A stretch of 64,000 nt of DNA from Tillus elongatus (Eukaryota; Arthropoda; Insecta; Coleoptera; Cleridae): the NCBI GenBank assembly GCA_964006375.1, contig OZ023263.1, forward strand, positions 135,050,370 to 135,114,369, read 5' to 3'. The notes below the pieces were generated by a model, which was not told the DNA's origin, searched no databases, and worked only from the letters and a program-made list of their open reading frames with translations. The translations under genes were made by a program, and so were the position numbers. Shown piece by piece: positions 14,582 to 46,262 of this stretch; positions within the stretch are counted from its first letter, which is position 1, and each line of letters begins with the position of its first letter.

Positions 14582-14587
14582 CAATCA
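14582..14587. other. Target site duplication, left (CAATCA)
   Basis: CAATCA directly precedes the AGTAGATAGTGGG terminus and is repeated at 23,757-23,762 directly after the opposite terminus. Excising one copy plus the element leaves the host polymerase reading frame continuous, which independently supports these boundaries. Confidence 0.9.
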
Positions 14588-15205
14588 AGTAGATAGTGGG
14601 ACACCTGGGCTCACCCCCTCCACTTTTTCTGCGCATGCGCGATGACGTCACGCGCATGCGTGTGAGGTTGACAGTTGACAGCTGACCTGTCACAGCTGTC
14701 AATGTCACCTGACCTGTCACAGCTGACAACTGTCAGTGTCAGCTGACCTGTCACAGCTGACAACTGTCAATGTCAGCTGACCTGTCACAGCTGTCAATGT
14801 CAAATGTCAAATGTCATGTGTCATCTGTCACATATCACATTTGACCTGTCTGATGACGTCAAATGTTCCAAGATGTCCGATCCTGACAGTTGTTACCTGT
14901 CATGATGTTCCATAGATAGCCACAGCCCGGGTTAGGTCTCCATGTGTTTGTTATCAACTGTCATATGTCACATCTGACCTGTCTGATGACGTCAAATGTT
15001 CCAAGATGGCTACAATCAGGTTAGGTCTCCATGTGCTTGTTGTCATCTGTCTGAGGGCTGTCACATCTGACCTGTCTGCTGACGTCAAATGTTCCAAGAT
15101 GGCTACAACCCGGGTTCGGTCTCCATGTGTTTGTCGAATCTCTGCTATCTGCTTGTTTGTTAAGGTTATGTTCGTATACATGTGTTGTATGACATATAAG
15201 CATGC
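14588..15205 (+). repeat. Left terminal inverted repeat of the 9.2-kb element
   Basis: It begins AGTAGATAGTGGGACACCTG, then a GC-rich block with GCGCATGCGCGATGACGTCA. Tandem AGCTGACCTGTCACAGCTGTC units and repeated TGATGACGTCAAATGTTCCA blocks follow. It matches the reverse complement of 23,198-23,756 with small indels in the number of GTCA-type units. The GACGTCA palindromes are CRE-like, and dense GTCA/TGAC motifs could bind a bZIP or terminal protein; this is inference. Confidence 0.88.
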
Positions 15206-15370
15206 TGATTCCCCGCTATCTGATTGTTTGTTAAGGTTATGTTCGTATACATGTGTTGTATGACATATAAGCATGCTGATTCCTGCTATCTGACTGTTTG
15301 TTAAGGTTATGTTCGTACACACACGTGTTACATGTTGATTTCCCGCGTTATCTGATTGTTTGTTGAGGTT
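15130..15370 (+). repeat. ~73-bp tandem repeats at the inner edge of the left TIR
   Basis: Three to four units contain GCTATCTGATTGTTTGTTAA, GGTTATGTTCGTATACATGT and GTTGTATGACATATAAGCATG. The first unit overlaps the end of the inverted repeat; the opposite end carries only one degenerate unit. Confidence 0.75.
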
Positions 15371-16385
15371 ACGTTTGTATTTGTTATGTCGCCAACCCGC
15401 TATCTGAATGTTTGTATTGTTGTTGCTAGGTAATTTCGGTTTTGGCGGGAAATTTGAATTTTATTGAAAATTAGCGTCTTTCATGTTCAGAGTCTAACTT
15501 GTCTTAGAGGGGAATATTCTATTGGAAATTGGTAGAGTGAGAGAACATTCCCTTATAAGGCGAGTTAGGCTTTGAACACACACATTCGGTTTAGCCATAC
15601 ATACAGATATGAGAGAGAGATAGACAGACAATTTGAAATCTGGTTTGAAAGAAAAGCATTCGCCTGAAATTAGATTTGAACCCCCGACCTCGAACTGACC
15701 GTATATATATCTAACATACATGTATCATCGCTACACCAATTACTCCACACAGACACTCAATATAAGGTTTGTTCGATGCATGTATATATAAAACAAAACC
15801 AGCTGTTGTTTACATATGATAATTAAACGCTTTTATCTAGTTGTGTAGGCGTTATCTCTATTACATTCCAATTTTAACACAAGAGAGGAACTTTAATTTT
15901 AAAAATATTGGGGAAATATATCTATAGTAAAATAGATTTAAACACGTTCCAATACATATGTAATATCAAATCTAAAAACAAAACGTTTGATTATAATATT
16001 AAATCGAAAACAAACGTATTTGCAAATGCAAATTAACCTGTTTCCTAAAATGGTAAGATAAATGTTATCAGTTTTACGTAGGTGTCAGTTTATGTGAGTG
16101 TTTTCTATTACAGTGAATCCAAATAATATTGTGGGGGCGTGTATATATAAGGATCGATCAAAAATACAAGTAACAAAACTCAATTTAACAACAAACTAAC
16201 TTTGATATACGGTTGTTTGATATGTGTTGTTTGAAACGAATGTAAACAGACTGTTGATATATGAATATATAAAGGGGTTAATCAAAATGCAACAAAATAA
16301 AAATAAAACAACTGATTTACATACAATAAAAATTTATTAGGATTAATTAAGCTGTACATATTGATACATAAAGGACATACTATTA
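15371..16385. other. Non-coding stretch inside the element; tRNA-like B-box at ~15,675
   Basis: There is no convincing gene in this ~1 kb. On the minus strand GGGGGTTCAAATCTAATTT (~15,665-15,685) fits a B box and TTGGTGTAGCGATG (~15,735) fits an A box. However, the T-stem does not pair, so I do not call a tRNA gene. The remainder is AT-rich. Two TATATATAA/TATATAAAG motifs lie near 16,145 and 16,270. Confidence 0.45.
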
Positions 16386-17577
16386 TTACATAATGGCTCT
16401 AACGATGCCCGTTAGAGGTTTATATTCCAATACACTGTCATGAATAACCAAACAATAAACACGCGTGTTGTTAGGGAAGTTCGAGCGGCTCATAAATTCC
16501 ACCTTAATGTCCACCGTTGAAGACTTGAGTGACTCGTTCTGGTGCTGACAGTCAATCATAAATAGAGCTCGGTCTTTAAACTCGTCATAATTCAAGATAG
16601 GCTCCGACATGTTTTTATAACAGAAGCTTTTTTGAAAATCTGTATACATGTGATAGGCTTCCGCATATTTAGATTTCTCAAAATCCATATTCATAGATTC
16701 ATAAGGGTAGCATTCTGAATTTAGAAACACTCGGAGATCCAACATACCAATGTTATCGAAATAGTCTGGCCTCTTCCTTACGTTATCTTTACGATCTGTT
16801 TGAAATGCTATAATCACACATCGAGGTCTTTCCAAGTTGGTTGCAGTTTTAACAGCCCACACATCTCTGTTGATATCTCTGAGTGATGGTAACTCATATA
16901 TGTCCCATTTGCGGTATGCGAGAAATATAGATGTCTTTTGCTATTTTATCCATCAGTTCCAATTTCATTTTATCATTGGGAAAGACATGTTTTACCTTTA
17001 AAAACATATTGGTTACGGTAATTTTTGCTCGTGCCGTACCTGTGCTGTAATAGCCGTTGGAATCGTTTCGAACTCTTGTAAAGCGGAAAGTATGTTTGCC
17101 ACAGAGAACTCCTTTGAAATGATGAAAGAAACTGAAGAGAAACCAAACAGGTATGAGCATGTGAAACTTGTTATCATTTAAGGTGATGTGCTCCGACGAC
17201 ACATTCAGTCCGGCATTGCTAAGAGATTGGGCTTCATTCTTACTGAAGGATAGCAGACTTTTGATGATTGTTGTGGTGTATGGGTCTCGCACTCGTTCCA
17301 CTTCCTTGTTATTTAACTCATAGGTCATTGATTCAAACAGAGCTGCTCCTCCATTATTTGACAGATAACAAGCACCATTGGCATCTTGGACTGCTAAAGG
17401 TTCCAGAGCACCTTCGATTATTAGAGCTGACTCGGCCAGACATACGAACGCATCTTGTTGGTTGATGGCTATTTCAATTTCATCGCTGTTACCAAACGAT
17501 TTAGTTGGTGAATAGTAAGAGCGCAGTTCTTCTCGATCGATGGCATCATCTTTGAATATTTCTAGTTTTGACGACAT
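16386..17577 (-). pseudogene. Major capsid protein, double jelly-roll type (one frameshift)
   Basis: Two adjoining minus-strand frames (17,577-16,894 and the continuation to 16,386) encode one protein of about 395 residues. It starts MSSKLEIFKDD. Recognisable blocks are IAINQQDAFVCLAESALIIEG, the LFESMTYELNNKEVERVRDP segment and HTFRFTRVRND in the first half. ELPSLRDINRDVWAVKTATN, RCVIIAFQTDRKD and FLNSECYPYESMN follow in the second. This arrangement is that of the insect Polinton double jelly-roll (DJR-like) capsid family, the building block of an icosahedral shell. A one-base slip near 16,915 (after AKDIYIS) breaks the frame. The homologue at 42,578-43,780 is far more decayed. Start chosen at the ATG aligned with that homologue (MLTKLHIF). 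Confidence 0.82.
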
Positions 17578-17684
17578 GATAACCCAGGCTTTTCAGGAAC
17601 TCAATATTATCGGGACGAAGCGTACCCTTTGAAGTGTCTGACTCAACTGAATTTGTTTTGGTAGATGCACTTGCTTTTATATCC

Positions 17685-18406
17685 TTAAAGACCAACATAC
17701 TGAGCAACTTTTATAAGTTTCAAGCGAACAGACACCTCTTCACCTTGAAAGTTGACAGGAACTGAATCTTGGTCGACGATGTCGATGCTTATATTGGAAA
17801 TCTCTTGCTTGTTCACCGGCAAGTAAATTAAGTTTTTAGGTTCTATGTCGATTGCGTAGCCAGGATCAACCATCGGAGCAAACTCATACAGCGTATGTGA
17901 GGGTTATCCGTTATAATAGGAACCATACACAATATTGGTTTCTATGCGAATCTGTCTAACATCCACTATTTCAACAGGTAAATCAGATTCATAAAAGATG
18001 TCCGGTTGAAGAACTTGTTTTGAAAAGCCCAACATTCGCCCAATCGAACCATCAAATTCAAAATTGACATTTGTATAACACTTTAGTTTACATTTGATGG
18101 TGTTCGGATTAGGTATCAGAATCAGAGCCTGTTGCTTTTGTTCGTGTGTTGCTGTAGCACCAACAAGTTCATTTTGAAGTCACTCTTCCAAGTGTGTTAT
18201 TTCATAAGCACCGGTGGGTATCGTGATGGTTCGCCAACCGGTTCCTTCTTTTACATGAAATTTGTTTTTACCTTCATAGATGTTGGGTATGTTGTTGTAG
18301 GTGTGAAAGCCTATCAAAGCAACAGCATAACTACCATTCAAAACAATTGGTGGATGTCTGACGACAGATGGGAGCTGTGGTCTTTCAACACAAAGGTGTG
18401 CGCCAT
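17685..18406 (-). pseudogene. Penton-like minor capsid protein (frameshift and two stops)
   Basis: The frame begins at an ATG at 18,406 (MAHTFVLKDH). A one-base loss near 18,350 shifts it, after which GSYAVALIGFHTYNNIPNIY and TITIPTGAYEITHLEE are read. An in-frame stop at ~18,180 and another at ~17,907 interrupt it. Between and after them GRMLGFSKQVL, LYEFAPMVDPGYAIDIEP and QDSVPVNFQGEEVSVRLKL continue the protein to ~240 residues. The same blocks in the same order occur at 41,699-42,430. The family is the single jelly-roll penton/minor capsid protein of Polintons and adintovirus-like elements; the identification rests on position beside the capsid gene and remembered motif patterns. Confidence 0.7.
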
Positions 18407-18438
18407 GACTGATACACACAGGCTACTGTTTGAGTCTT

Positions 18439-18872
18439 TTATTGCAAAAATTGTAAACACAAGTGACCACAATTAAATGTGTTGTATGTTTGATACACAT
18501 CATGATTATACAGTATGGAATAGTCTTTAAGGTAACGTTGCAGCTCCACAGGAGGCTTCAGGTTTCCATACGAGTCAAAGTACTCGACGATGTCACCACG
18601 TTTCCTCACAGCAACCCAATGACTGCCTGGCTGCTTGTGTGTTTGCAAATTCATGATGAACGATACATTTTACGTGGTCCATTGCATGGAAGCACATCTC
18701 GCATGTATACACCTCTAAAATATGGGATTTTCATTTTACCAGCAAACTTGACAAGATCTACATTTGTCAGAGGTATTGCTGGTAAACACTTTAGTTTTTT
18801 GGTTTTTGCAGATACAACCCATAACCGGAGAGCTGTTTCTTGAGATATATGCCTTTGCCCAGTCTCTTGCAT
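18439..18872 (-). pseudogene. Adenain-like cysteine protease (PRO), one frameshift
   Basis: This is a maturation protease of the adenovirus-protease/Ulp1 type that would cleave capsid precursors. The N-terminal part reads PLTNVDLVKFAGKMKIPYFRG; a one-base loss near 18,668 changes frame. The rest shows the catalytic histidine in GSHWVAVRK, the aspartate in YFDSYGN, and the cysteine in CGHLCLQFL near the end at 18,439. The His-Asp-Cys order fits the family. The reading frame overlaps the 3' end of the minor capsid gene by about 80 bp; the true start may be the internal ATG of MKIPYFRG (~18,745). It lies between minor capsid and penton genes, as in the second gene set. Only the frameshift prevents a full product. 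Confidence 0.82.
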
Positions 18873-19300
18873 TTTGGCTTAAATTTCAAGCCACTCCCTC
18901 TCCTGCCCATCGCGATGGCTTCCATTGTTTTGTTGTGCCGTTCTTCCTCCTCCAGTTTCTGCTTCGCAGACTTGGCATCGTTCACGGCTTTGGCAATACC
19001 TGCAGCACCACCACCCAGAGCTCCTAGTGCTGACAGCCCACCAAATATCAGAGGCAACAGCGGAAGGAAGCCTCCGCTTTTAGGTATTGGAATAACTCGA
19101 GGTTTCTGCACATTCTTACGCCCACCAATGTTTCTAACGATTGTATGAGCTATATCAAACACGGCGTTCTCTGTTGGAATAAGGTTTCTATCTTTTATAA
19201 CTTCCCCAATCAGGCTTATTATGTTTTTAAAGGGAACCTTCTTCTTTGGCTTCGAGTTGATAACATAAAGCCCCTCACCAAGTTTTCTGTTAACTTTCAT
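18791..19300 (-). CDS. Minor capsid protein pX/pVI-like
   Basis: An open frame of 169 residues. The N-terminal half is basic (KPKKKVPFKNIISL, RNIGGRKNVQKPRVIPIPK). A glycine/alanine-rich hydrophobic stretch follows (GGFLPLLPLIFGGLSALGAL and GGGAAGIAKAVND, residues ~85-115). Then a helical charged segment (AKQKLEEEERHNKTMEAIA) leads to a C-terminus with GKGIYLKKQLSGYGLYL. This architecture is typical of the Polinton minor capsid protein compared with adenovirus pX/pVI, whose amphipathic region binds membrane or DNA. The homologue at 40,870-41,320 is fused downstream of a PLA2 domain; here no PLA2 domain precedes it. It is one of the few intact genes of the element. Confidence 0.72.
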   Translation of the reverse strand: MKVNRKLGEGLYVINSKPKKKVPFKNIISLIGEVIKDRNLIPTENAVFDIAHTIVRNIGGRKNVQKPRVIPIPKSGGFLPLLPLIFGGLSALGALGGGAAGIAKAVNDAKSAKQKLEEEERHNKTMEAIAMGRRGSGLKFKPKCKRLGKGIYLKKQLSGYGLYLQKPKN

Positions 19301-19445
19301 GGTGTTTCTAACGCCCGCAACGTTTCAGAAAAACCTGTGTCCGGCTTTGTTAATAACAACCCTCACTCTGTGACACCAACATGCATACTGACTGGGTGTC
19401 TCACTTGTATTCATATATATCTACACACCCAAAAATATAGTTTAG
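19301..19445. promoter_or_regulatory. Divergent intergenic region between minor capsid and ATPase genes
   Basis: About 150 bp separates two divergently read gene blocks (minor capsid-protease-penton-capsid leftward; ATPase-DUF8207 rightward). The second gene set has the same divergent layout at 32,351-32,418, so a shared bidirectional promoter is likely. No clear TATA element was picked out. Confidence 0.4.
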
Positions 19446-20143
19446 TTTAAGTTAACCAGCAAACACGCTTCTGCCTTACCCATTACAAATATAGACGATG
19501 TTGTTACGGACACAGCTAAACAACAACTGAGGCATGGTCCTCTCTTTCCAAACACCGTTCGCTGTATCATATGTGGTCCTGGTGAGTGTGGTAAAACTAA
19601 TGTCATGCTGAGTTTATTGTTTGAAGCAAACGGTTTAAAATTTGATAACGTGTATGTGTATTCAAAGTCTCTGTATCAACCGAAATACAAGATGTTAAAG
19701 GAGGTGTTGAATGCAACAAAAGGTGTTGGTTACTATCCTTATAGAGAAAACGATGAAATATTAGATCCGGAAGATGCAAGGACAACTCTGTGTTTATATT
19801 TGATGATGTAGCTTGTGACAACCAAGATAAAATAAGAGCATACTTCAGTATGGGCAGACATAAGAATATTGATTCATTCTATCTCTGTCAAACATATACA
19901 CGAATACCCAAACATCTGGTACGTGACAACACCAATGTTATTGTGTTATTCAAGCAAGATGAAACCAATTTAAAACATGTGTACGACGATCATGTGACCA
20001 CCGATATGGACTTTAAACAATTTAAAACTATCTGCTACCAATGCTGGAAAGATAATAAGTATGGTGTGTTGGTGATTATGAAGGAAAATGATGTACACAA
20101 AGGTCGATATAGAAAAGGATTCGATAGATATATATTATTCTAA
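19446..20143 (+). pseudogene. FtsK/HerA-type DNA-packaging ATPase (frameshift)
   Basis: A P-loop CGPGECGKTNVM (Walker A, ~19,575-19,610) is followed by VYVYSKSLYQPKYKML. A one-base slip near 19,780 precedes Walker B (VFIFDDVACD, ~19,793), then GRHKNIDSFYLCQTYTRIP (the sensor/arginine-rich segment) and NVIVLFKQDETNLKHVYDDH. The product is the A32-like genome-packaging ATPase found in Polintons and many DNA viruses; it pumps DNA into the capsid. No ATG precedes the conserved LPITNIDDVV start, so the initiation codon has also been lost or lies in an upstream exon. A close but more damaged copy is at 31,661-32,350. Confidence 0.85.
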
Positions 20144-20154
20144 CTGGTTACAAA

Positions 20155-20290
20155 CAATGGTAGACAGGACAGTCAGCTGTCTAACACAGCTGTCATACAG
20201 GTGTCTAACACAGCTGTCATACAGGTGTCATACAGCTGTCTAACACAGCTGTCTAACACAGCTGTCTAACACAGCTGTCTAACATGACAG
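20155..20290 (+). repeat. Short tandem CAGCTGTCTAACA repeats
   Basis: Ten or so units of 13-18 bp (CAGCTGTCTAACA, CAGCTGTCATACAGGTGTC) fill the gap between the ATPase and DUF8207-like genes. They resemble the CAGCTGTC units in the terminal inverted repeats, so they may bind the same protein. Confidence 0.75.
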
Positions 20291-20497
20291 ACGGACATCG
20301 TGATAAATAAGAAGACATGTAACATGACGGAGTCAGTATACGTTAAACCACCGCACAACCTGTATCGCTCAAACAAATGATTAGACCGGCTGGTAACACC
20401 GACCAGTTGTAGCACAATGGAAGTGCTGGGTAAGGAAGAGTGAAAAGTTAAGAAAAGGATTTTACAACTTGCTGACAATATTCAAAAAAAACATTTA

Positions 20498-21532
20498 ATG
20501 CTTAAACTTAACAGAGCTGAGAATGATGATGCTCTGCAACGTTTATATAAACCAATTGTTGAGCTGCTAAGTGAAATATCTAAAAACACATCAGCACTGC
20601 AGCAGCAGCAGCCGCAGCCACCATTGGCTGAACAAATCAAAGACGAAGTCGATATACCAGAAACGAAACCCCAAGTAGAGTTCCTGAAAGACCATGAAGT
20701 TTTTGAAGCTGAACCAAGGGAAGAGGCTGAGGAGACAAGTTCCGATGAGGATATCCCAACATTTGAAGAGCTTGAGGCAGACCTACAAACTATCACATCC
20801 AACCCAGCATATCAAGAATTTTTGGAGCAATATCCTGAACGAGTTCGATATTATGTAGACAAGTATTTTACTGAACCACCAAGGCTCGCTACCATTGATC
20901 AAACGTATGGTGCTCGCTACGCTAAAGATACCGGTAGCTGGAGTCTTGGTAACAAACACTTAGACTTTACTGATGCTGAGATTCAACTGGGCCAAAGGAG
21001 ATACCCGCAAACACAAGGTCTGCTAGAATTGTTATTTATGAAAAGACCCAGGGGGTATACTTATGACGATCTTCAACACTATAGAGATATTCTAGAAGCA
21101 ACTAGTGTTCATAAAATGAACTATGATCCTAACGCACGAACCAAAGGTTGTTCCTCTGAAAAGTATCTGACTCTAATAAAACCTGTGATAAATCCACGAG
21201 GTCGTAGATCCTCAACTCCTCAAGGTTTTGGTTACACATATGAGGAATACGATGACGACAGCAACGCCAGACATCTCAACAAAAAACAAAAGACTGAACC
21301 TAAAACTCAGAGTGATAAGAGCAGCGATAGCAACGGCATTAGCCCTAACAACATCAGCACCAACAACTATATGATACAAAATAACAAACAAATAGCATAT
21401 GTGTATGACATAAACGAGTTGGTTGACAGACTTAGACTTTTAGTGGCTTCCCAAGTTGCAGGTAATAATGCTCATAATAACGAAATTCAGTCAATCTTGG
21501 AAGAACTAAAAGAAGCTAGTGTTATCACCTAG
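20498..21532 (+). CDS. Conserved Polinton-associated protein, DUF8207-like
   Basis: 344 codons, open. The start is followed by LNRAENDDALQRLYKPIVEL and a Gln/Pro-rich stretch (residues ~38-50). An acidic linker follows, then the conserved core YPERVRYYVDKYFT, TYGARYA, GLLELLFMKRP and YRDILEATSVHKMNYDP (residues ~115-215). A low-complexity Asn/Ser region comes next, then a C-terminal helix (NNAHNNEIQSILEELKEA). The 'TYG.RY ... G..eL.. kkP ... Y..il..T....NdP' core is what I remember as the DUF8207 family of arthropod mobile elements. Its function is unknown to me. It sits just downstream of the ATPase in both gene sets, so a morphogenesis or DNA-binding role is plausible. The homologue (start 31,619) has a longer N-terminus; here matching codons upstream of 20,498 are closed by a stop near 20,447, so the present start may be a truncated one. 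Confidence 0.7.
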   Translation: MLKLNRAENDDALQRLYKPIVELLSEISKNTSALQQQQPQPPLAEQIKDEVDIPETKPQVEFLKDHEVFEAEPREEAEETSSDEDIPTFEELEADLQTITSNPAYQEFLEQYPERVRYYVDKYFTEPPRLATIDQTYGARYAKDTGSWSLGNKHLDFTDAEIQLGQRRYPQTQGLLELLFMKRPRGYTYDDLQHYRDILEATSVHKMNYDPNARTKGCSSEKYLTLIKPVINPRGRRSSTPQGFGYTYEEYDDDSNARHLNKKQKTEPKTQSDKSSDSNGISPNNISTNNYMIQNNKQIAYVYDINELVDRLRLLVASQVAGNNAHNNEIQSILEELKEASVIT

Positions 21533-21545
21533 TAAACCCACAGCC

Positions 21546-21680
21546 ATGAAGAGGCACCAACGACAACAACACCAACGTAACACTGAACCATCTAATGTTA
21601 AAAAATTCTATAAATGTATTCCAACAAACGGGCAAGAGTTTACATACTTGTACTTAGAATCAAATAAAAGTCTTTGTTAA
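21546..21680 (+). CDS. Possible 44-codon basic protein
   Basis: A short open frame begins MKRHQRQQHQRNTEPSNVKK and ends ESNKSLC, 13 bp after the DUF8207-like stop. It is basic and Gln-rich at the N-terminus. I know no homologue and do not see an obvious copy in the second gene set. An AATAAA at ~21,663 overlaps its last codons and could be the polyadenylation signal of the plus-strand transcription unit. Confidence 0.3.
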   Translation: MKRHQRQQHQRNTEPSNVKKFYKCIPTNGQEFTYLYLESNKSLC

Positions 21681-21709
21681 AATTAATGTGTTTTTATTTT
21701 GTAATACAA

Positions 21710-22795
21710 TTAAAAAGTATGTCTTAAAGCAATAATATCCTGAACAAACTTATCTTGTGGTACATCTGCTATCTGTATGTTGTTTCTATGTGCTGTAAGG
21801 TATTTCACTTCAGTCTTTGTTCTGTTAAAGAAATTTACTGAATTTGGATCATACAGCTTGTTTAGGATCACTTGGGCATTGGGGTGTTTATTTTTAAAGT
21901 TCCTCACAGCTCTTGGGAAACTTTTCTTTTGTGTTCTTACGGCATGATATGGATAGGGGGCGCCTTTCTCGTTTCTTGCAAGTAAACCAAACACACTTAT
22001 TTTTCCCGGGTTACTTGGTTTTGGGGATATATCTTCAAGATGTTCTGTGACTTTAGCATTTGTTTCTCGCATACGCTGCACCTCATCATTTATCTCCATT
22101 AATTTCACTTCAATCTCCTCTAGGTTGTCCCTGTATTTCTGATCAAATTCGTTTAGGAAAAAATCAAAAATATTTTGGTTGCATTTGTCATATAACTGAT
22201 TGGATATCCAGCAAGCCAAATTTACTATCAAATCTTTGCACACATATGTACCAGATATCAAGTTGTTTTCAGCCTGTCTCCCACCAAAGTCCACCACATA
22301 TGTAGCTGTTGTAGGTGTTAATTTAAATGTTGCAGACGCTTCTAGGGTATCGGTATTCCGGCCCCCTGGAAGCGACTCTAAGTGGGCTCCTTCGGTTGAA
22401 ATATTTAGGGTATCGGTATTCCAATACCCTAAATCTTCCTTTAGCTGACTGATGGCGGTTGTTGGTGTTAATTTAAATGTTGCATCCGTTTTTAGGGGGG
22501 CAGTATTCCGGCTCCCTGGAGATAACTCTAAGTGGGCTCCCTCGGTTGAAACATTTGGCATATCGGTATGCCGATAGCCCAAATGTTCCTTCAGCTGACT
22601 GTTGTAATAGGCAATCAACTCTTTAGTTTTCTTATTTTCCAACCAATGTCTGAATCTTTTCTCACCACTCTTACACAATTTTGTGGCATTGAAATATCCA
22701 GTGTTTTTATCGATAATAACTTGAAAATCGCCAAATAGACCATACCAGAAGTTATCTTTAATTTGCTGGTAACACACATCACTTAATGTAGCCAT
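21710..22795 (-). CDS. KilA-N domain protein with internal repeat
   Basis: 361 residues, open. The N-terminal 60-70 residues (DNFWYGLFGDFQVIIDKNTG, YFNATKLCKSGEKRFRHWLE) are a clear KilA-N domain, a DNA-binding fold common in large DNA viruses and phages. Residues ~68-165 contain two copies of a ~47-residue repeat (LKEHLGYRHTDMPNVSTEGA and LKEDLGYWNTDTLNISTEGA, each ending FKLTPTTA). A coiled-coil segment follows (LEEIEVKLMEINDEVQRMRE). The C-terminal domain (VFGLLARNE through LNKLYDPNSVNFFNRTK) resembles the DUF3627-type tail of iridovirus/ascovirus KilA-N proteins. It is transcribed towards the DUF8207-like gene from the right end. It may regulate the element or recognise its ends; that is inference. 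The second gene set has no visible KilA-N gene. Confidence 0.82.
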   Translation of the reverse strand: MATLSDVCYQQIKDNFWYGLFGDFQVIIDKNTGYFNATKLCKSGEKRFRHWLENKKTKELIAYYNSQLKEHLGYRHTDMPNVSTEGAHLELSPGSRNTAPLKTDATFKLTPTTAISQLKEDLGYWNTDTLNISTEGAHLESLPGGRNTDTLEASATFKLTPTTATYVVDFGGRQAENNLISGTYVCKDLIVNLACWISNQLYDKCNQNIFDFFLNEFDQKYRDNLEEIEVKLMEINDEVQRMRETNAKVTEHLEDISPKPSNPGKISVFGLLARNEKGAPYPYHAVRTQKKSFPRAVRNFKNKHPNAQVILNKLYDPNSVNFFNRTKTEVKYLTAHRNNIQIADVPQDKFVQDIIALRHTF

Positions 22796-23197
22796 TTTGA
22801 AACAGATTTGGGTAGAGCAAACTGAAGCACGTCTTTTCTCAACGACAACTCAATTATAAATGAGCTTAAAGCGAACTCTAACAGAGAAACTAGGTCATAG
22901 ACAGGAAATGACAACTGATAACAACTGTATTCCAAGTCTGCCATGGGTATATCTCTGAAAACTAGGTCACCTACCGGAAATGACAACTGATAACAACTGT
23001 GTATTCTAACTCTGCCACGGCTCTGACTCTGAAAACTAGGTCACCTACCCCGAAATGACAACAGATAGCAAGTGTACAGACAAGTTCTAACACGTTAGCT
23101 GTCTGTATTTAGCTGTCATATCTGTCAAACATGTTATTCAAATCACATTTGTCTGTTTGTTTCGTGTGTGAAAATCAAATTTCCCGCTAAACTGAGT
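22796..23197. promoter_or_regulatory. Upstream region of KilA-N gene with ~110-bp direct repeats
   Basis: Repeats of GAAAACTAGGTCACCTACC, GGAAATGACAACTGATAACA and AACTCTGCCACGG occur two to three times (22,885-23,070). They lie between the KilA-N start and the right inverted repeat. No other gene is seen. The position suggests a promoter/operator of the KilA-N gene. Confidence 0.5.
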
Positions 23198-23756
23198 GCT
23201 TATATGTCATACAACGCACACATAACCTCAACAACCAACCAGATAGCAGGCATTCGACAAACACATGGAGACCGAACCCGGGTTGTAGCCATCTTGGAAC
23301 ATTTGACATCAGCAGACAGGTCAGATGTGACAGCCCTCAGACAGATGACAACAAACACATGGAGACCTAACCTGATTGTGGCCATCTTGGAACATTTGAC
23401 GTCATCAGACAGGTCAGATGTGACATATGACAGTTGATAACAAACACATGGAGATCTAACCCGGGCTGTGGCTATCTATGGAACATCATGACAGGTCACA
23501 ACTGTCAGGATCGGACATCTTGGAACATTTGACGTCATCAGACAGGTCAAATGCGATATGTGACAGATGACACATGACATTGACAACTGTGACAGGTCAG
23601 CTGACATTGACAGCTGTCAGCTGTGACAGGTCAGCTGACATTGACAGCTGTGACAGGTCAGCTGTCAACTGTCAACCTCACACGCATGCGCGTGACGTCA
23701 TCGCGCACGCGCAGAAAAAAGTGGAGGGGGTGAGCCCAGGTGCCCCACTATCTACT
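23198..23756 (-). repeat. Right terminal inverted repeat of the 9.2-kb element
   Basis: Its reverse complement starts AGTAGATAGTGGGGCACCTG and follows the left repeat block for block (GCGCGATGACGTCACGCGCA, AGCTGACCTGTCACAGCTG, GATGACGTCAAATGTTCC) as far as TTGTATGACATATAAGCA. It differs by scattered substitutions and fewer AGCTGACCTGTCA units. CAATCA follows at 23,757. Confidence 0.88.
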
Positions 23757-26370
23757 CAATCATGTTAAAGTAAATTTACCCACCACCGATTTAGGCAAGG
23801 ATAAATATGGTAGATACGTACCCGAGAATTTACTTAGATTTGTCGATTTTGAAAAGAAAATGCGTGTCCCTTTCGTTGTGTATGTAGCTTTTGATCTTTT
23901 GTGTCCTTTGGAAACTGAACAGCCTCAAAATTGTTGCGAGTTATTCACACAAAAGACTCATAAACATTCCGTATTCGTTCGCGTACTACATGAAATGCTC
24001 TTTCGATGACTCGCTGTCAAAATTTGAAACATATGGTGGTCAGGACGCCGCTCGAGTTTTTGTTGAACGTTTAGAAAACGATACTAGAGAGATGTATCAA
24101 AACCAATTGGTAAAGGTTGGGCTATGACACCTTTAACCGATGAACAAGAGCGCGAATTTCAAAATTCAAAATCATGTCACATATGTGAAAGATCTGACGT
24201 CGATGAGGAAAAAGTTCGTGACCACGACCATTTGCTGGAATTTAATAATTATTGCGGCCCGCTCACTCCATCTGTAATCTAAATTATAAAGTTCCAAAAT
24301 TCATTCCGGTATTTTTCCACAATCTCTCAGGGTACGATGCTTATCCCTTCATCAAATAGTTGGCAGAGTACGAACCAAAATTAGATGTAATCGGTCAAAA
24401 TAAAGAGCGATACATTACTTTTAGCAAACGTCTTAGGTGATCAAGAGGAAGTCTGAAGGCAACAAAACAAAACAGACATACATAAAATTTAGATTTTTAA
24501 ATTCATTCAGGTTTGTGGCTAAAAGTTTGGAGAAATTAGGAAAAAAAAAATACAAGACAGTCAGTGTAGGGAGGTTAAAAAATATTTCGCAGACACAAAC
24601 AAATTTAACCTAATTAGACAGAAGGGCGTATTTCCATATTCGTATGTTGATTCATTTGAAAAGCTGGAAGAAACTAAGCTTCCATCTGAAGAAGGGTTCT
24701 ACGATTCCTTGAGAGGTGAACACATCCTGCATGCTGATTACAAGCGTGCATGTAAAGTGTGGCAGATGTTTAAATGTAAAACTTTGGGTGACTATTCAGG
24801 TTTGTATTTAAAATCTGATGTGTTACTTTTGGCGGATGTGTTTGAAAATTTTAGGAATGTTTGTTTTGAGGTGTATAATCTCGATTCTTGTCAGCACGTT
24901 ACAGCTCCATCTCTTGCTTGGAATGCTGCCCTAAAAACTACTGGGCTGGAACTTGAACTGCTAATAGATATCGAGATGCATCACTTTTTCAAAAAAGGTA
25001 TACAATAGGGTGTCAGTATAGTGTTAGACGGGGAGTAACAACGAACACACCCCACACTATGACAAAACAAAGCCGAAATCGTGGCTTATCTATGCTGACG
25101 TCACTAGTTTGTACGGCATACGCATGCGCCAGACCATGCCAATCTGGGAATTCCGTTGGCTCTCGGAACAAGACATTCAGAATTTAACAATTCAAAATTT
25201 GGGGGAAGACGATGATTTTGGTTATGTTTTAGAAGTTGATTTAGAGTATCCAGAGAGCCTACATGACTTACATAACGAATTACCCTTTTGTCCAGAGCTT
25301 TCGTCCTCCCAAAAGCGAAATTGCCGAAACTTATTCCAAATTTAAACAACAAAACGAAATACATCATTCATTATAGAAACCTGAAACAATGTGTGGCAAA
25401 CGGGTTAGTTTTGAAGAAGATGCATCGCGCAGTGACTTTTAAGCAGTCTCCATAGTTAAAAATGTACATCGACAAAAACACAAAATTACGTAACCTATCG
25501 AACAACAAATTTGAGCGCGATTTCTTTAAATTGATGAACAACGCGGTATTCGGTAAAACCATGAAGAATTTGGAAAAGAGGGTAGACGTAAAACTTGCGA
25601 CGAACTGGGACAACATCGAGCGCAAACCGGGTGCGTCGACGTACATCAACAAACAACATTTTAAAAATAATTCAATTTTTACGGACGACTTTGTCGCCAT
25701 ACAGATGAACAGAACTTAGGTGACATACGACAGGCCCATATATGTCGGTTTGTCGATATTAGATGTATCAAAAACCGTCATATATCAGTTTTGTACGGCC
25801 ACCTAAATATTAAATATGGCGACAAAGTGACTACTGTACACTGACACTGACTCTTTCATTTTTTTTAGTAGACAGACAATTTTTACGACGACATGAAACA
25901 AGACATTGACAGATACGATACATTCAACTACGCTACTGACAACCCCCACGGAATGCCTGTGAATTAAAGTGTTGTAGGGCGAATGACAGATGAGTATAAG
26001 GGTAAAACTTTGTATGAAATGGTGGGAACGGGTGCTAAGTCATATATGATTGATGGAGCGGATGTGTTAACGAAAAAGGAGAAAGGTGTGCAAACGTGCG
26101 TGACTGAAAGAGCTTTGAGAGTGGATGATTATAGGAATGTTGTGGATAGTATGAGTGGAACAAAAATGGATGATGATGGATACGTGTTGGTAAATGATGG
26201 TCGAGTGTTTAAGCGTATGAATGTTTTTCGTACCAGTATGCATGATGTGTATACTCAGATGGTGAATAAGGTAGCGTTGTCACATTTCGATGATAAACGC
26301 TACCTTATAGCCGACTAATATAGAACTCTTGCTTGGGGCCACAAAAACATCGCCGTGAAAAAGTAACTCG
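23757..26370 (+). pseudogene. Polinton-type DNA polymerase B, exonuclease and polymerase domains (decayed)
   Basis: This is the continuation of the gene interrupted at 14,588. In order: an exonuclease I-like region (RVPFVVYVAFDLL, with the acidic Exo I residues altered), a Cys/His segment (CHICERSDVDEE) and Exo II (FHNLSGYDAYPFIK). Exo III follows (LGDYSGLYLKSDVLLLADVF). Then come polymerase motif A (ADVTSLYGIRM, ~25,100), motif B (FKLMNNAVFGKTMKN, ~25,530), motif C (LLYTDTDSFI, ~25,835) and the C-terminal GKTLYEMVGTGAKSYMIDG and SHFDDKRYLIAD. Together these identify a protein-primed family B polymerase of Polinton type. More than eight frameshifts or stops (for example near 23,985, 24,125, 25,008, 25,345, 25,718 and 25,970) make it non-functional. 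A LINE lies immediately downstream. Confidence 0.88.
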
Positions 26371-29172: not shown

Positions 29173-30085
29173 TTATTTAATGTCTTTAGTGTTAACCCCA
29201 GAATTATGGGTTTTATCAAAACCAAGCCATTTCACGTATGACTTGGTACCTTTTTTTCTTAACACTTTTTCAATTAAATACATGTCAGAAGATAGAGTCT
29301 TTTGTAGTTCTTCTTCATAAAATCCTCCACTGATAGGCTTGCCTTGCATGTCTTCAATTAAATAGGTGGTTGGATTGGTGTAGTGAATTTTAGTGATTTT
29401 GAACAATTCTGTTGACCAATGTGGTGTATAGCCTTTTTCAACTAATGTTTTGGCTTTGCTTAGACATACATCACCCACTTTAAATTTATTTTTGTTAAAC
29501 ACTTTGATATTTGAGTAGGCTTGTTTGAGAATAGCTTCTTCATTTTTCTTATTAACATCTTTAGGCTTTATACCAGTTGTTTGATGAATTGTAGTGTTAT
29601 AGTTAGCAGTGACACCAGGTAATGTATTTAACCACTTGTAGGAACCAAACAAGTTAAAATTTTTAAGGTACGTATGACTCTTTCTACTATTGTAGCCTTC
29701 TTCACACTCTAAGGGCTATAATAGTTAATGTTGTACTTTTTCATTAAGGCATTACATTTGGAGGTGGAAAACTTCTTACCAAGATCAGACTGAATGTTAG
29801 AGGGTTCTGTACTATTAGCTAAAATATCAGCCATAGCTTTAGTCACCTCGTCAGCATTTTTTGATTTAAGTGGACGAGTCCACACATACTTTCAAAAACA
29901 ATTGATAGCCACTAAAATGTATTTACAACCAGTGTTTTCGCGATGATAGTCTGTAAACTCAGCCAAATCACTTTGCCACAATTCATTTAAACGTTTAATT
30001 ATGGTACGTCTACGTTTAAAATTGATTTTTGCTGGTTTATACAGCTCATTTAAATTTGTTTCTTAGCATCAGATGGCTCACTCAT
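29173..30085 (-). pseudogene. Polinton integrase with chromodomain (broken)
   Basis: A retroviral-type DDE integrase of the outer Polinton. From 30,085 down: ELYKPAKINFKRRR, then the first catalytic Asp in LWQSDLAEFTDYHREN, the second in IQSDLGKKFSTS, and the Glu in KKATIVERVIRTLK. After a frameshift near 29,655 the C-terminal part reads FGSYKWLNTLPGVTANYN, HQTTGIKP and an SH3-like FKVGDVCLSKAKTL. A chromodomain follows (YLIEKVLRKKGTKSYVKWLG). In-frame stops near 29,890 and 29,710 and two frameshifts inactivate it. The family would insert Polinton DNA and create 6-bp target duplications, the size seen around the 9.2-kb element. Confidence 0.85.
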
Positions 30086-30533
30086 GGTGATGTTGGATTT
30101 AACAGTATCCACTTGTTATGTAGATATTTTAGTTTGTTGTCTATTTCACCCAACTTCTTTCTCAACTTGTTATTCTTTGACACATCAATGTCTTTTAAAA
30201 CTTGAGCAGTTATGTTCTTGGTTAAAATTTTCAATTTATTTTCAAATTCGTTTTTTAAATTTTCCAACTCTGGCTTGTGTACAGCCTCAAGTAGTATAGC
30301 AATTATTCTTTGTGTCACTTTATCTGTTATTCTGATAATCATCTATCCATGCATCAACATTTTTTATTTACACCATCTGTTGAATCGACTGGATCACCAA
30401 CGTTACACAATTTGTGGATTTGCACATCAAAATCACCACTTGTAGTTCTTGTGAAAATCTCTATTTCAACCACTATACTATGTATAAACTTGCTGGATTT
30501 TGCAGCAGTACGACCAAACTTGTCGATAGACAT
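30082..30533 (-). pseudogene. Fibre-like coiled-coil protein next to integrase
   Basis: It starts MSIDKFGRTAAKSS and includes FDVQIHKLCNVGDPVDSTDG and VNKK. The 'k.L.NV.DPv...DaVnK' pattern is typical of tail-fibre-type proteins in which it precedes a trimeric coiled coil. After a frameshift near 30,345 a helical Lys/Glu/Leu-rich segment follows (ELENLKNEFENKLKILTKNI, KLRKKLGEIDNKLKYLHNKW). It overlaps the start of the integrase. A structural role at the virion surface is inferred. No counterpart exists in the 9.2-kb element. Confidence 0.55.
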
Positions 30534-32418: not shown

Positions 32419-32790
32419 ATGTTGGTATTTAAGGGTGAGGGTCGTGTAAACACACTCATTAACACTTTATCGCTTGAGTTACACATACCTGGTTATCGTT
32501 TTGTGGTCCTGGTACCAAACTTGAGGAACGTTTGGCCAGAGGTGATCAAGGTATCAATCCTCTAGACCGTGCTTGTAGAGATCACGACATCGCTTAATCG
32601 CAATCAAAACAGTTGAGTGATAGACACCGAGCTGACGAGGTGTTGGAGAACCGAGCTAGGGAAAGAGTCAAGTCGAAAGACCAAAGTTTTGGTGAAAAAG
32701 TGGCTGCTTGTGGTGTAGCAAAAACAGTTAAAGTTAAAAGAAAACTTGGTATGGATGTGAAATCAAAGACAACCACCAAACGTAGACGCA
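32419..32790 (+). pseudogene. PLA2-domain/minor capsid gene, 5' part (interrupted by provirus)
   Basis: It starts MLVFKGEGRVNTLINTLSLE. After a one-base slip near 32,508 it shows the calcium-loop-like CGPGTKLEERLARGD and the catalytic-type ACRDHDIA, characteristic of the parvovirus-VP1-like phospholipase A2 fold. In capsids that domain breaches endosomal membranes; here the role is inferred from family. A TAA follows DHDIA directly. The next ~80 residues (SDRHRADEVLENRARERVK, KDQSFGEKVAACG) are open until the errantivirus at 32,791. The gene continues at 40,470, where part of it is duplicated. Confidence 0.78.
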
Positions 32791-33194
32791 AGATAACAAT
32801 AGCCAACTCATACAATGTATATAAGAAGTACAGATCCCGATTCAACACCCAAGGTCGCTGACGAATGGGTTAATTAAAAGCAGCGCAATTAGAAGAATAG
32901 ACTATTCATAAATGTGTAAACAACTAGACCTTCAACTCAGCAACCAGCCACCTGCTAGGATCACCTTCAAGACTGCAACTTAGGTGGAAACCGCCTCTCG
33001 GTCCACGCCCCACCAGAGACTATATATGGAAGTTACCAGACCACAGACGAACATTCCTACATTGTTATTGCTTGAGTCTCTTTTAACTTGTCATAATTTA
33101 TATTTATCATTTTTTTATTATTCATAAGTATTTTATGTAACTATAATCAATAAATTCTTTTAAAAAGTCAAGTGTGTTAACAAGAAAGTTAACT
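32791..33194 (+). repeat. 5' LTR
   Basis: 404 bp, starting AGATAACAATAGCC and ending AAGAAAGTTAACT, with an AG..CT terminus style as in the 17.6/297/gypsy group. A TATA box (ACTATATATGG) lies at ~33,020 and an AATAAA polyadenylation signal at 33,149-33,154. It matches the 3' LTR without a difference that I can see. Confidence 0.95.
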
Positions 33195-33206
33195 GGCGCA
33201 GTCGCA
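33194..33206 (+). promoter_or_regulatory. Primer-binding site, tRNA-Ser type
   Basis: TGGCGCAGTCG starts at the last base of the LTR and is complementary to the CGACTGCGCCA 3' end of insect tRNA-Ser, the usual primer of the 17.6/297 group. Confidence 0.8.
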
Positions 33207-33343
33207 ACGGATAGTGCTGAAGAACCAAAAGTATATTGATTCTTTGCGTTTCAACGCTTAACAGCCAAAGAACCGATCAAGAGAGACGTCATGAAGACAG
33301 CAGCAATAGCATCGATTCTGTAAGTTGTTTGCTTCCTTTATTT

Positions 33344-33345
<2 letters not shown>

Positions 33346-33413
<68 letters not shown>
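33346..33413. repeat. (TA)n tract in the provirus leader
   Basis: About 68 bp of TA repeats lie in the untranslated leader about 30 bp before gag. It has the same composition as the genomic TA tracts elsewhere in this window. Confidence 0.95.
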
Positions 33414-33414
<1 letters not shown>

Positions 33415-33443
33415 TGTATTTCCTCATATATTGATAATATTAT

Positions 33444-34703
33444 ATGTCTGATAGCGATATTGATAATTTAGAACATTTGGAATATAGATTAAGAAATATT
33501 AGTATTGGCGAAATTGATATTGTAGAACAACCCGATATAAATAATTCTAGAAACAATTTAAATATGGCAAATCAATTCCAAGAGTTTTACCTTAAAGCAA
33601 TCCCCGAATTTAACGGACAACCTGAAAATGTAGGAAACTTCTTAAAAGCTTGTGATCTAGTAATGAACCAATTCTATGATGCAGATAATCCAAATTTATA
33701 TCTTAACCATTTCCTATTAAATTATATTCAAACGAAACTAATTGCACAAGCCAGGTTAATTATTAACACTAAAATTATAAACACATGGGTAGACTTAAGA
33801 CGGGCAATTGTTGAGAACTTTACAGACCAGCGAGATGAAATTAGCTTACTAGGCGAATTATTGACACTGAAACAGAGACATAACGAGGATGCCTTAGCGT
33901 TCAGTAATCGTTGCAGACACATTGAACAATTACTCATCTCTAATTTAATATCTAATGAACGTAACGAGGGAATTTTAGTATTAAAACAAAACATGTACAG
34001 ACAACAGACACTGAAAGCGTTTATCGGTGGATTAAAAAACCCCCTTGGTATGGTGGTCAGATCCACTCGACCAGACAGCATAGAACAAGCTTTAAAATTT
34101 ATATTTTCCGAGGAAAATTATGAATATAGGGACAGATTATTACAACGGTCAAATTTCAACAATAATAACAATAACAGGCACGACAAACAACAAAAACCAG
34201 TTTTCCAAAGAAATACCCCAAATTTTAACAATATTCAATTTCAAAAACCCTTCCAACAACAAAATTATTGTGCACCTTTTAACTATAATTCAAACAGACC
34301 CCAAATGTCTCACCCACAATTTCAGGGGAACCCTTCAAATCAATTCTCAATGAGAAGACCGACGTACAACCCTAATGACAATACTAGAAGATATCCACAG
34401 GCTATTGATGTCGGCAGTAACAACACGAGACATACTAATTTCAGCCGACAACAACCCTCACAAAATAGACGAAACAATTTTCCTTCCAACAATTTTCAAA
34501 AAAGACAAAATTTCATACCAGAAGAAATAAACTATAACGAAACGAATAATTCTTTTCCTTTCAATGAATTAGAAAGAAGACAACATTTCTTACCAGAAGA
34601 ATTAAATTATGACGCAACATATAATGAACAATCACCCTCCGAATTATACGATGCACAGCATCAAAATTTTCCGATAGCAGGGAGCTCAAAAACAGAACCG
34701 TAA
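33444..34703 (+). CDS. gag: Errantivirus Gag
   Basis: 419 residues, open. A predicted helical capsid-like region spans residues ~45-230 (FYLKAIPEFNGQPENVGNFL, LLGELLTLKQRHNEDALAFS). A long Asn/Gln/Arg-rich tail follows (RSNFNNNNNNRHDKQQKP) and is likely the nucleic-acid-binding part. No CCHC zinc knuckle is seen, as is common in errantivirus Gag. The C-terminal 76 bp overlap the pol frame. The product would form the particle core. Near the end two copies of a ~20-residue repeat occur (LPEEL/IPEEINYNET-type). Confidence 0.9.
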   Translation: MSDSDIDNLEHLEYRLRNISIGEIDIVEQPDINNSRNNLNMANQFQEFYLKAIPEFNGQPENVGNFLKACDLVMNQFYDADNPNLYLNHFLLNYIQTKLIAQARLIINTKIINTWVDLRRAIVENFTDQRDEISLLGELLTLKQRHNEDALAFSNRCRHIEQLLISNLISNERNEGILVLKQNMYRQQTLKAFIGGLKNPLGMVVRSTRPDSIEQALKFIFSEENYEYRDRLLQRSNFNNNNNNRHDKQQKPVFQRNTPNFNNIQFQKPFQQQNYCAPFNYNSNRPQMSHPQFQGNPSNQFSMRRPTYNPNDNTRRYPQAIDVGSNNTRHTNFSRQQPSQNRRNNFPSNNFQKRQNFIPEEINYNETNNSFPFNELERRQHFLPEELNYDATYNEQSPSELYDAQHQNFPIAGSSKTEP

Positions 34704-38386: not shown

Positions 38387-40041
38387 AACCACAATTAGAA
38401 GACCTAACAGACAATCCAGGCATACTGCCACGCAAACTGGGACAAGCCTTTTCAGAAAACGATAAATGGAGAATGATTCATATACATGACCTAAGACAAC
38501 TATACGACGACTTTAACAGACTAAAAACTTACTTTGACAACATAATAAGCGTAATGGATGCAGAATACAAATTAGAATACAAAAATTTTATTTTAACAAT
38601 CAATTTCACCATCAGCAATATTGATGACACATTTTATCGAATATTTCCAAGAACGATTAGGAACAAAAGAGGTATAATAAACGGACTAGGATCGATATTC
38701 AAATCAATAACTGGGAACTTAGATGCAGATGACGGCGACAGAATATATAAAACTCTTGAAATTTTGAGGAAAGATCAAAATCAAGTACATCAACTTTTTA
38801 GTTCACAGACATCCCTAATGATAGATGCTATAACAGAGTTCAATAAAACAATAGACAACCTGAACCATAACCAAGAAGCCATAGTAGCGAGAATAAACGA
38901 TTTGGAATATACAATAGATAGTCTAAAAAGCGACCAACTAACAAATTTTCATAGAGTAAAACATTTGGAATTACTCACTCACATCAGTTATTTGTTAAAT
39001 AATGTACTAAACATGATATTAACAACAGAAAAGGCAATTACTTTTTCAAAATTGAACACGTATCATACGTCAATACTGAAACCGAAATTTATATCAAAAG
39101 AATTAGAGAATATTGAAAACCATATCTCAAAATCAAGATTAATAACAAAATCCGACATTTCACTTTATGAAAAAATATTTAACATAAAAACCGTTCAAAT
39201 TGATTTTAAAATTATATTCCAAATAGATATACCCTTAGTAGACAAATCAGATTATATTTATTATCAATTGTATGCATTACCAGTCCCTAAAAATCCGTAT
39301 ACCTTCAGAATGATTGTCCCTAGAACCAAGTACCTAATCCTTAGCAGCAAACACTACGCTTACAGAAACGAAAAGTGTAGGAATCTAAAAGACCAGACAT
39401 ACTTTTGTGAAAATGACAACCCGACAGCACTTAATGAAAACAACCCATGCGAAATTAAACTGATCAACTTCCAGAAACCGATAAACAATTGCAAGCAAGA
39501 ACTTGTCAAAATAACAAAAACAACAGTCTCTAAATATGGCAATACCCAATACATAATAGTGGCACCCGAAGAAACGAAAATCAAACTTAGCTGCGAAGAA
39601 AATGAAGAAACCAAAATAATCAGCGGAACAAAACTGGCGACTCTGAAACCCAAATGCCAACTTATCATCAATAACGAAAGATTTAGTTCAGTACAAATGG
39701 CATCGGAAACACAACAATCATTCAATCTCCCAAACATCGAATTGGTAACAAATAAAGCACCCATATTCCCAGACAAATTACCAGAACTAAAATTAGAAAA
39801 TGTCCAACTGCACGACTTGAACAATATCAAATCCCAGTTACAATCCATCAATGGCAACATTCCAGGAACCATCGATTTGCCCATATACCACCCTAGTGTA
39901 TGGACAATTATACTATACATTGTGATAATAATAACAATAATCACAATAACTTCAAGATACTTCTGGCAGAAATCAAAAACGAAAACTGCTGACTCCAAAC
40001 CAATTACTGGATTCCCGATGACTATTCGGAACGAACCATAG
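38384..40041 (+). CDS. env: Errantivirus Env (F-type fusion protein)
   Basis: The frame is open from before 38,384 (a TTCATTCTCTTCACCAG acceptor-like tract precedes it); the first ATG is at 38,473, giving 522 residues. A furin-type site RNKR lies at residues 63-66, followed at once by a Gly-rich hydrophobic fusion-peptide-like segment (GIINGLGSIFKSITGNLD), as in the baculovirus F/errantivirus Env family. A coiled-coil region follows (residues ~95-160), then a Cys-containing ectodomain. Near the C-terminus there is one transmembrane segment (WTIILYIVIIITIITITSRYF) and a short tail. Env is expected from a spliced mRNA. No break is seen. Description only; tropism is not inferable. Confidence 0.88.
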
Positions 40042-40051
40042 GCTTCGTTCT

Positions 40052-40065
40052 CTAAAGGATGGAGG
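40052..40065 (+). promoter_or_regulatory. Polypurine tract
   Basis: AAAGGATGGAGG lies immediately before the 3' LTR start at 40,066, the position used to prime plus-strand DNA synthesis. Confidence 0.75.
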
Positions 40066-45933: not shown

Positions 45934-46184
45934 CTGATTTTTATAATGGTCTTATTAGGTAACTTTCTTTGTGCAATACAAATTTCGACTAGTTGCAATT
46001 AAGCTACAGCTTTGAAGTTTGGCAGCCAAGTCCTGTAACAATGCAGTATAGTACCTATATATTATCTAATAATGTTCAAAATCCATTATGGCAGACCCCT
46101 CCAAGATGGCGAATTACACTGCTCTTCCATAGTAATTCGTTTTTTGTGTCTATATGCGTAACATTATCTTTTTTTTAAGCTAGA

Positions 46185-46188: not shown

Positions 46189-46261
<73 letters not shown>

Positions 46262-46262
46262 T

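What the first reader, a model, noticed from the sequence alone, without database searches (positions are those of the whole stretch)
14588..23756. A 9.2-kb terminal-repeat element that carries virion genes but no polymerase or integrase
Sequence: exact AGTAGATAGTGGG termini, ~0.6-kb inverted repeats and a CAATCA 6-bp duplication define a complete element. It encodes major capsid, penton-like, protease, minor capsid, packaging ATPase, DUF8207-like and KilA-N genes only. Known: Polintons/Mavericks normally carry polB and a retroviral-type integrase and make 6-bp duplications. Inference: this is a non-autonomous, capsid-carrying Polinton that needs polymerase and integrase from a helper, the reverse of the usual deletion derivative, which loses capsid genes first. 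If the family has many copies with the same gene content, it would be a satellite-like class of Polintons.
Basis: partly seen in the sequence, partly recalled or inferred. Interest (0 to 1): 0.88.

Follow-up and report, generated by a model that had tools for sequence, protein, structure and literature searches.

The report
Polinton satellite family with own capsid
A repeated, virus-like mobile DNA family keeps genes for building a virus shell but has no recognisable polymerase or integrase of its own, and it shares its DNA ends with a second family that has the integrase, which suggests that it lives as a satellite of other elements in the same genome.

Summary
Window 14588-23756 is a complete 9,169-bp element: 13-bp termini, inverted repeats (96.8% alike), CAATCA duplication; MCP, A32 ATPase, KilA-N/DUF3627 plus penton-, minor-capsid- and protease-position genes and one unassigned ORF; no polB or integrase found.

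It is not a private deletion. Nine copies, window included, match all seven genes in one order; 7 of 8 elements with both termini located have perfect 6-bp duplications; 13 of 21 exact-terminus pairs are 8.7-10.3 kb. Variants shared between copies are mostly synonymous (37 N:66 S) against singletons (459 N:216 S; p=6e-10; virion genes alone p=2e-6), so the genes were selected while the family spread. 100 of 103 scored MCP matches are full-length without stops.

The same TIRs bound a second family with integrase, diverged capsid genes (MCP 27-45% identical) and a metalloproteinase; no polB was found in the two copies read. TIRs do not sort by family (p about 0.3). polB frames exist elsewhere; none of 77 scored lies within 30 kb of an exact terminus.

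Best reading: a satellite-like, capsid-carrying Polinton lineage that uses integrase, and probably polymerase, in trans. Mobilisation in trans, polymerase source and virions are inferred, not shown.

The parts
14582..14587 (.). target-site duplication CAATCA, left
   Evidence: sequence
14588..15171 (+). left terminal inverted repeat (starts AGTAGATAGTGGG)
   Evidence: inverted-repeat arms; family-wide TIR search
16386..17592 (-). double-jelly-roll major capsid protein gene, broken in this copy
   Evidence: PF21738 on both pieces; open 401-aa relatives
17685..18422 (-). penton-position gene, broken in this copy
   Evidence: gene order and 241-aa open relatives; no Pfam family
18439..18878 (-). 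protease-like gene, broken in this copy
   Evidence: weak Peptidase_C48 match of a relative
18791..19324 (-). minor-capsid-position gene (169 aa from its ATG), open
   Evidence: gene order; no Pfam family
19446..20143 (+). A32-type packaging ATPase gene, frameshifted in this copy
   Evidence: PF04665
   Evidence: no Pfam match
21710..22795 (-). KilA-N + DUF3627 protein, 361 aa, open
   Evidence: PF04383 and PF12299; relatives
23220..23756 (-). right terminal inverted repeat
23757..23762 (.). target-site duplication CAATCA, right
   Evidence: sequence
23758..26315 (+). surroundings: pieces of a polB gene of another (outer) Polinton
   Evidence: PF03175 at 24523-25005; ORF pieces, (the other pieces assigned by position)
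29176..30342 (-). surroundings: integrase pieces of the outer Polinton
   Evidence: ORF pieces; 73-79% identical to the type ii integrase, which matches PF00665

Best explanation
The element belongs to a conserved, multi-copy family ('type i') of capsid-encoding Polintons without polymerase and integrase. It most likely behaves as a satellite: its ends are the same as those of a co-resident integrase-bearing family ('type ii'), so type ii integrase should insert it, and a protein-primed polymerase should come from polB-bearing elements elsewhere in the genome. It keeps its own capsid, protease-like and packaging-ATPase genes, so it would package itself rather than take a shell; KilA-N/DUF3627 is probably a DNA-binding regulator. 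Shown: structure, recurrence of the gene set, 6-bp duplications, TIRs shared with type ii, past selection on the genes, co-resident integrase and polB frames. Inferred: integration in trans, replication by borrowed polB, virions.
For: Nine copies (window included) match all seven genes in one order, and none of the type i loci read has a polB match; 7 of 8 elements with both termini located have perfect 6-bp TSDs. Exact termini: 77, in 21 inward pairs, 13 of them 8.7-10.3 kb. Shared variants 37 N:66 S against singletons 459 N:216 S, p=6e-10, robust to CpG codons, to leaving out the window copy and to leaving out four damaged copies; virion genes alone p=2e-6. TIR identity 0.93 within type i, 0.92 within type ii, 0.93 between, permutation p 0.28-0.34, although MCPs are only 27-45% identical. 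Full-length stop-free MCPs in 100 of 103 scored matches; 117 of 124 scored type-ii-like INT matches without stops; polB-family frames present.
Against: No transposition, expression or particle data. polB-bearing loci could not be read, so their ends and gene content are unknown. The two complete type ii elements read have no polB either, so a two-element helper scheme is not enough. TIR loci were picked for likeness to the window TIR, and gene lists are best-scoring subsets. The selection test is below 0.05 for 4 of 7 genes; unassigned ORF 0.07, ATPase 0.17, minor-capsid position 0.82. Shared variants also include recurrent hits, and relatedness of copies is not modelled. Only one host genome was examined.
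Confidence: 0.62

Rival explanations
1. One part of a divided (multipartite) Polinton system: type i, type ii and polB-bearing elements depend on one another, and type i supplies something the others need rather than only taking.
For: Type i lacks polB and INT, the two type ii elements read lack polB, and polB frames lie elsewhere; type i and ii have common ends and both show many near-identical open copies.
Against: Type ii has its own complete-looking capsid set, so it has no evident need of type i. The ends of polB loci are unknown.
Confidence: 0.17
2. A non-autonomous transposon whose capsid genes are passengers: integrase and polymerase act in trans, but no particles are made.
For: Common ends are enough for mobilisation in trans; several copies have lost capsid genes and yet lie between TIRs, two with perfect TSDs (L034, L040).
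Against: Selection on virion genes (p=2e-6) and stop-free MCP in 100 of 103 scored matches.
Confidence: 0.12
3. An autonomous element with an unrecognised way of replication and integration, for example by the unassigned 344-374-aa protein or KilA-N with host enzymes.
For: The unassigned protein has no Pfam family and is kept open in several copies.
Against: Homologues of the unassigned protein also occur in Polintons that have integrase and polB, so it does not look like a substitute; 6-bp TSDs are those expected of a Polinton-type integrase.
Confidence: 0.07
4. A private internal deletion of a complete Polinton.
For: L045 keeps integrase remnants between KilA-N and the unassigned gene, so integrase was lost by deletion in at least one branch.
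Against: Recurrent gene set, size class, TSDs and selection; capsid genes too diverged from type ii and the outer Polinton to be their deletion product.
Confidence: 0.02

Closest known systems
Polintons/Mavericks
   Same: TIRs of hundreds of bases with AGT-type ends, 6-bp TSDs, DJR MCP, A32-like ATPase, protease-like gene; gene order equal to the outer Polinton of the window except for KilA-N at the polB/integrase position. Vertebrate Mavericks have AGTAGT-type ends and 6-bp TSDs (PMC8097293, passages).
   Different: No polB and no RVE integrase; 9 kb; KilA-N/DUF3627 in their place.
Incomplete Polintons without capsid genes
   Same: Loss of a whole gene module.
   Different: Nine such elements lacked MCP, PRO and ATPase (PMC4028283, passage); here those are kept and polB/INT are missing.
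Polinton-like viruses (PLVs)
   Same: DJR capsid module, mostly without pPolB and RVE-INT (PMC11071308, passage).
   Different: PLVs instead encode other replication proteins (same passage); none was recognised here, and the ends equal those of an integrase-bearing family in the same genome.
Satellites with their own shell genes (Mulch/Flayer of Streptomyces phages; adeno-associated virus)
   Same: Works like them if the reading is right: own encapsidation genes, borrowed replication (listing abstracts only).
   Different: Unrelated genes and hosts; here satellite and presumed helper are integrated in one genome and share TIRs.

Membership tests
Polinton/Maverick | long TIRs and 6-bp target-site duplication | tested here: met
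   (7 of 8 elements perfect)
Polinton/Maverick | double-jelly-roll MCP | tested here: met
   PF21738, 234 bits in L046; both window pieces
Polinton/Maverick | A32-type packaging ATPase | tested here: met
   PF04665 above cut-off
Polinton/Maverick | Ulp1/adenovirus-type cysteine protease | tested here: inconclusive
   Peptidase_C48 E 0.0044, below cut-off
Polinton/Maverick | single-jelly-roll minor capsid (penton) | tested here: inconclusive
   gene order only; no Pfam family
[quoted passage not shown]
   no tblastn match of outer polB pieces in any of the 20 fetched regions; no PF03175 match in element proteins scanned
Polinton/Maverick | RVE integrase | tested here: not met
   no integrase match in type i loci read except remnants in L045
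Deletion derivative of type ii | shared genes nearly identical to the parent | tested here: not met
   MCP 27-45%, unassigned protein 41-43% identical
Polinton-like virus | alternative replication protein | tested here: inconclusive
   none recognised by Pfam; one protein is unassigned
Satellite virus | own capsid gene | tested here: met
Satellite virus | replication depends on a helper | not testable with these tools
   needs experiment

The most novel reading that the evidence does not exclude
The genome holds a divided Polinton system in which separately inserted element families share the work: one with capsid and KilA-N only, one with capsid, integrase and a metalloproteinase, and one with polymerase, the first two with interchangeable ends, spreading together like the parts of a multipartite virus.
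Probability: 0.17. Interest if true: 0.93.

Novelty: new variant of a known kind. Interest (0 to 1): 0.8.

Why it matters
Polintons are defined by carrying their own polymerase and integrase, and the vertebrate Maverick survey seen here screened genomes with exactly those two genes (PMC8097293, passage), so a class like this would be missed. If the family is mobilised in trans and makes particles, it would be an endogenous satellite with its own shell living in the same genome as its helper. It also gives a handle on whether Polintons are viruses: keeping capsid genes under selection without replication genes makes most sense if capsids are used.

Tried and rejected
Private deletion was rejected by the recurrent copies. 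Derivation of type i from type ii by deletion was rejected on capsid divergence. I looked for TIRs of this family on the outer Polinton of the window and found none, so the helper role was not assigned to it; its own ends were not found. Co-location of the MCP, KilA-N, INT and polB lists (0 MCP-INT, 0 KilA-INT, 0 INT-polB, 1 MCP-polB pair within 20 kb) was judged weak, because MCP and KilA-N themselves meet at element spacing only three times: each list is a best-scoring subset. A scan of viral contigs with the type i MCP found no relative. KilA-N relatives are 32 proteins of 1051 candidates, among them orb-weaver spider and entomopoxvirus proteins, which does not name the host. In one search one TIR (L041 at 51) had been counted as type i without gene evidence; one search repeats the test without it, with the same outcome. 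Structure prediction was not used: its stated rule does not list proteins from whole-genome loci.

Literature: paper searches returned listings; no listed title or abstract start that I saw described a capsid-bearing animal Polinton family without polB and INT. Searches and look-ups failed or timed out (97 was later answered as 117). The adintovirus paper (veaa055, PMC8502044) is not held and was not read.
Full report
Observation. The element at 14588-23756 is real and complete. Both ends carry AGTAGATAGTGGG, and CAATCA is duplicated at 14582-14587 and 23757-23762. The inverted arms are 96-98% complementary in blocks of 362, 140 and 41 bp, and the two ends are 96.8% identical over 536 aligned bases.

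Genes. Read from the KilA-N end the order is KilA-N/DUF3627, an unassigned ORF, ATPase, minor-capsid position, protease-like, penton position, MCP. Pfam supports MCP, ATPase, KilA-N and DUF3627. The unassigned ORF has no Pfam family, so the label DUF8207 is not supported here. The protease match is sub-threshold; penton and minor-capsid names rest on gene order. In the window copy MCP, penton, protease and ATPase are broken; the minor-capsid-position, unassigned and KilA-N frames are open.

Surroundings. The right flank starts in pieces of a polB gene (PF03175 at 24523-25005), followed by integrase, the unassigned ORF, ATPase, minor capsid, protease, penton and MCP of a second, decayed Polinton, itself interrupted by a LINE-like insertion and an LTR element with gag, pol and env-like frames (names of those two from the sequence and recall). 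The element's gene order equals that of this outer Polinton, except that KilA-N stands where polB and integrase stand. DNA similarity between them is limited to four blocks at 69-79%. That the left flank holds the start of the same polB gene is my reading of a recalled motif and was not tested; the flanks were not joined.

Copies. The window lies in a 1.72-Gb genome of 30 contigs, host unnamed. The TIR query gave 76 matches from 40 scored of 2073 first-look candidates. Twenty regions were fetched and typed by tblastn. Nine copies including the window match all seven genes in one order: window, L031, L033, L041/L042, L043, L044, L046 (KilA-N partial), L047, L050. Seven other type i loci are truncated, rearranged or only partly covered: L032, L034, L040, the second copy in L042, L045, L048, L049. 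L039 holds a TIR and no gene. No type i locus read has a polB match. Only L045 has integrase matches, a 149-aa N-terminal frame and a C-terminal scrap without the middle pieces, which suggests loss of integrase by deletion in one branch. Of eight elements with both termini found by script, seven have perfect 6-bp duplications; L044 matches at five of six bases.

Size classes. The exact terminus pattern gave 77 places against 0 for the reversed control. They form 21 inward pairs under 40 kb: 13 of 8.7-10.3 kb, one of 13.7 kb, three of 17.2-17.9 kb, four of 22.7-33.9 kb; 35 termini are unpaired. Six of the 13 small pairs hold a listed MCP or KilA-N place, one of the three 17-kb pairs holds a listed INT place, and no pair holds a listed polB place; of the 35 unpaired termini, 10 have a listed MCP or KilA-N place and one an INT place on the inner side within 22 kb. 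None of the 77 scored polB places is within 30 kb of an exact terminus. The gene lists are best-scoring subsets, so pairs without a listed gene are untyped, not empty.

Second family with the same ends. L035+L036 (17.6 kb) and L037+L038 (20.7 kb, last 0.8 kb covered by L028) carry RVE integrase, the unassigned ORF, ATPase, minor capsid, protease, penton, MCP, a gene X, a matrixin-type metalloproteinase with a hemopexin domain, and several ORFs without a family. No polB was found by tblastn with the outer polB pieces or among their ORFs of 90 aa or more outside the Polinton core. Two more TIR loci (L004, L017) carry type ii genes next to the end. TIRs of the two types cannot be told apart: mean identity 0.928 within i, 0.923 within ii, 0.925 between, permutation p=0.34 over 25 elements, four of them type ii; without one untyped TIR p=0.28, without a further one p=0.30. 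Four TIRs without gene evidence were left out in all three. Proteins differ strongly: MCP 27-45%, unassigned ORF 41-43%, penton pieces 39-69%, minor capsid 59%, ATPase 72-80%, protease pieces 67-69% and 92%. Diverged payload with common ends is what mobilisation in trans predicts; homogenisation of ends by recombination is an alternative. TIR loci were selected for likeness to the window TIR, which favours finding like ends.

Selection. Pooled pairwise dN/dS per gene among type i copies is 0.29-0.59 (L045's second block included). Sorting single-base codon variants into singletons (mostly after insertion) and shared ones (mostly before) gives 459 N:216 S against 37 N:66 S, Fisher one-sided p=6e-10 (L045's second block left out). 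By gene the test is below 0.05 for KilA-N, protease, penton and MCP, and not for the unassigned ORF (0.07), ATPase (0.17) and minor-capsid position (0.82, four shared variants). It holds without CpG codons, without the window copy and without four damaged copies; for virion genes alone p=2e-6. Singletons are also somewhat below the by-sites expectation (0.41-0.77), as expected if some predate insertion or mutation is biased. Recurrent hits and relatedness are not modelled.

Abundance. Type i MCP: 103 scored of 7194 first-look candidates; all 103 cover the full 401 aa and 100 have no stop; groups of 35 and 21 share one score each. KilA-N: 113 scored of 7559, listing cut off; a second subfamily lacking part of the internal repeat is spread over the genome, 16 places sharing one score. 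L051, beside one of these, has KilA-N directly followed by the unassigned ORF with no integrase between, 93% identical to the window element. INT: 124 scored of 11885; 117 without stops; 41 share one score. L052, beside one of these, is type ii. Equal scores suggest, and do not prove, identical sequences. Both families therefore look recently active. polB family: 77 places scored of 809; 67 are listed with an open frame of 1,000 aa or more, two of them with a stop in a second matched piece; nine inverted pairs lie 7.7-16 kb apart.

Mechanism. Most likely a satellite-like Polinton lineage packages itself with its own capsid, protease and ATPase, is inserted by type ii integrase acting on common ends, and is copied by polB from another element. 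The integrase step rests on the common ends; the polymerase step is inference; particles are inference supported by selection on virion genes.

Comparison with what is known. By content this is half a Polinton: it meets the structural features tested and fails both enzymatic ones, so I do not file it as a complete Polinton. It works like a satellite virus that brings its own shell. Literature seen: passages of PMC4028283, PMC11071308, PMC8097293, PMC10120064 and PMC6431247, and search listings for the rest. No listing described this combination, but most subscription papers and the adintovirus paper were not available.

Noticed in passing
L036:4722-6358 and L037:2542-4180: Type ii elements carry a matrixin-type metalloproteinase and a hemopexin domain (PF00413, PF00045) beside several family-less ORFs; an unusual cargo for a Polinton.
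   Followed up: partly
host genome, e.g. C2:60861460 and C2:60873600; C5:117391400 and C5:117403353: polB-family frames occur as nine inverted pairs 7.7-16 kb apart, as if polB lay inside long terminal repeats.
   Followed up: no
L045:5042-10000: Type i variant with integrase remnants between KilA-N and the unassigned gene, and a 1.3-kb near-identical inverted duplication.
   Followed up: partly
window 18439-18669 against L035:8483-8710: One protease piece is 92% identical between type i and type ii while MCPs are 27-45% identical, as if exchanged recently.
   Followed up: no
window 45937-52699: Very large near-perfect palindrome (3.2-kb arms, 99.3% alike) with a 323-bp direct copy; a foldback element or an assembly artefact.
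   Followed up: no
window 32499-40874: LTR element with 407-bp direct repeats (99.8%); a further 295-bp stretch of the outer minor-capsid gene is present on both sides (98.6%), more than a target-site duplication.
   Followed up: partly
window 22305-22604: Two 150-bp tandem repeats (82% alike) inside KilA-N; the widespread second KilA-N subfamily lacks about 40 residues there.
   Followed up: partly
L039 (C3:56173833-56174882): TIR matches on both strands within about 1 kb and no gene between, possibly a miniature derivative of the family.
   Followed up: no
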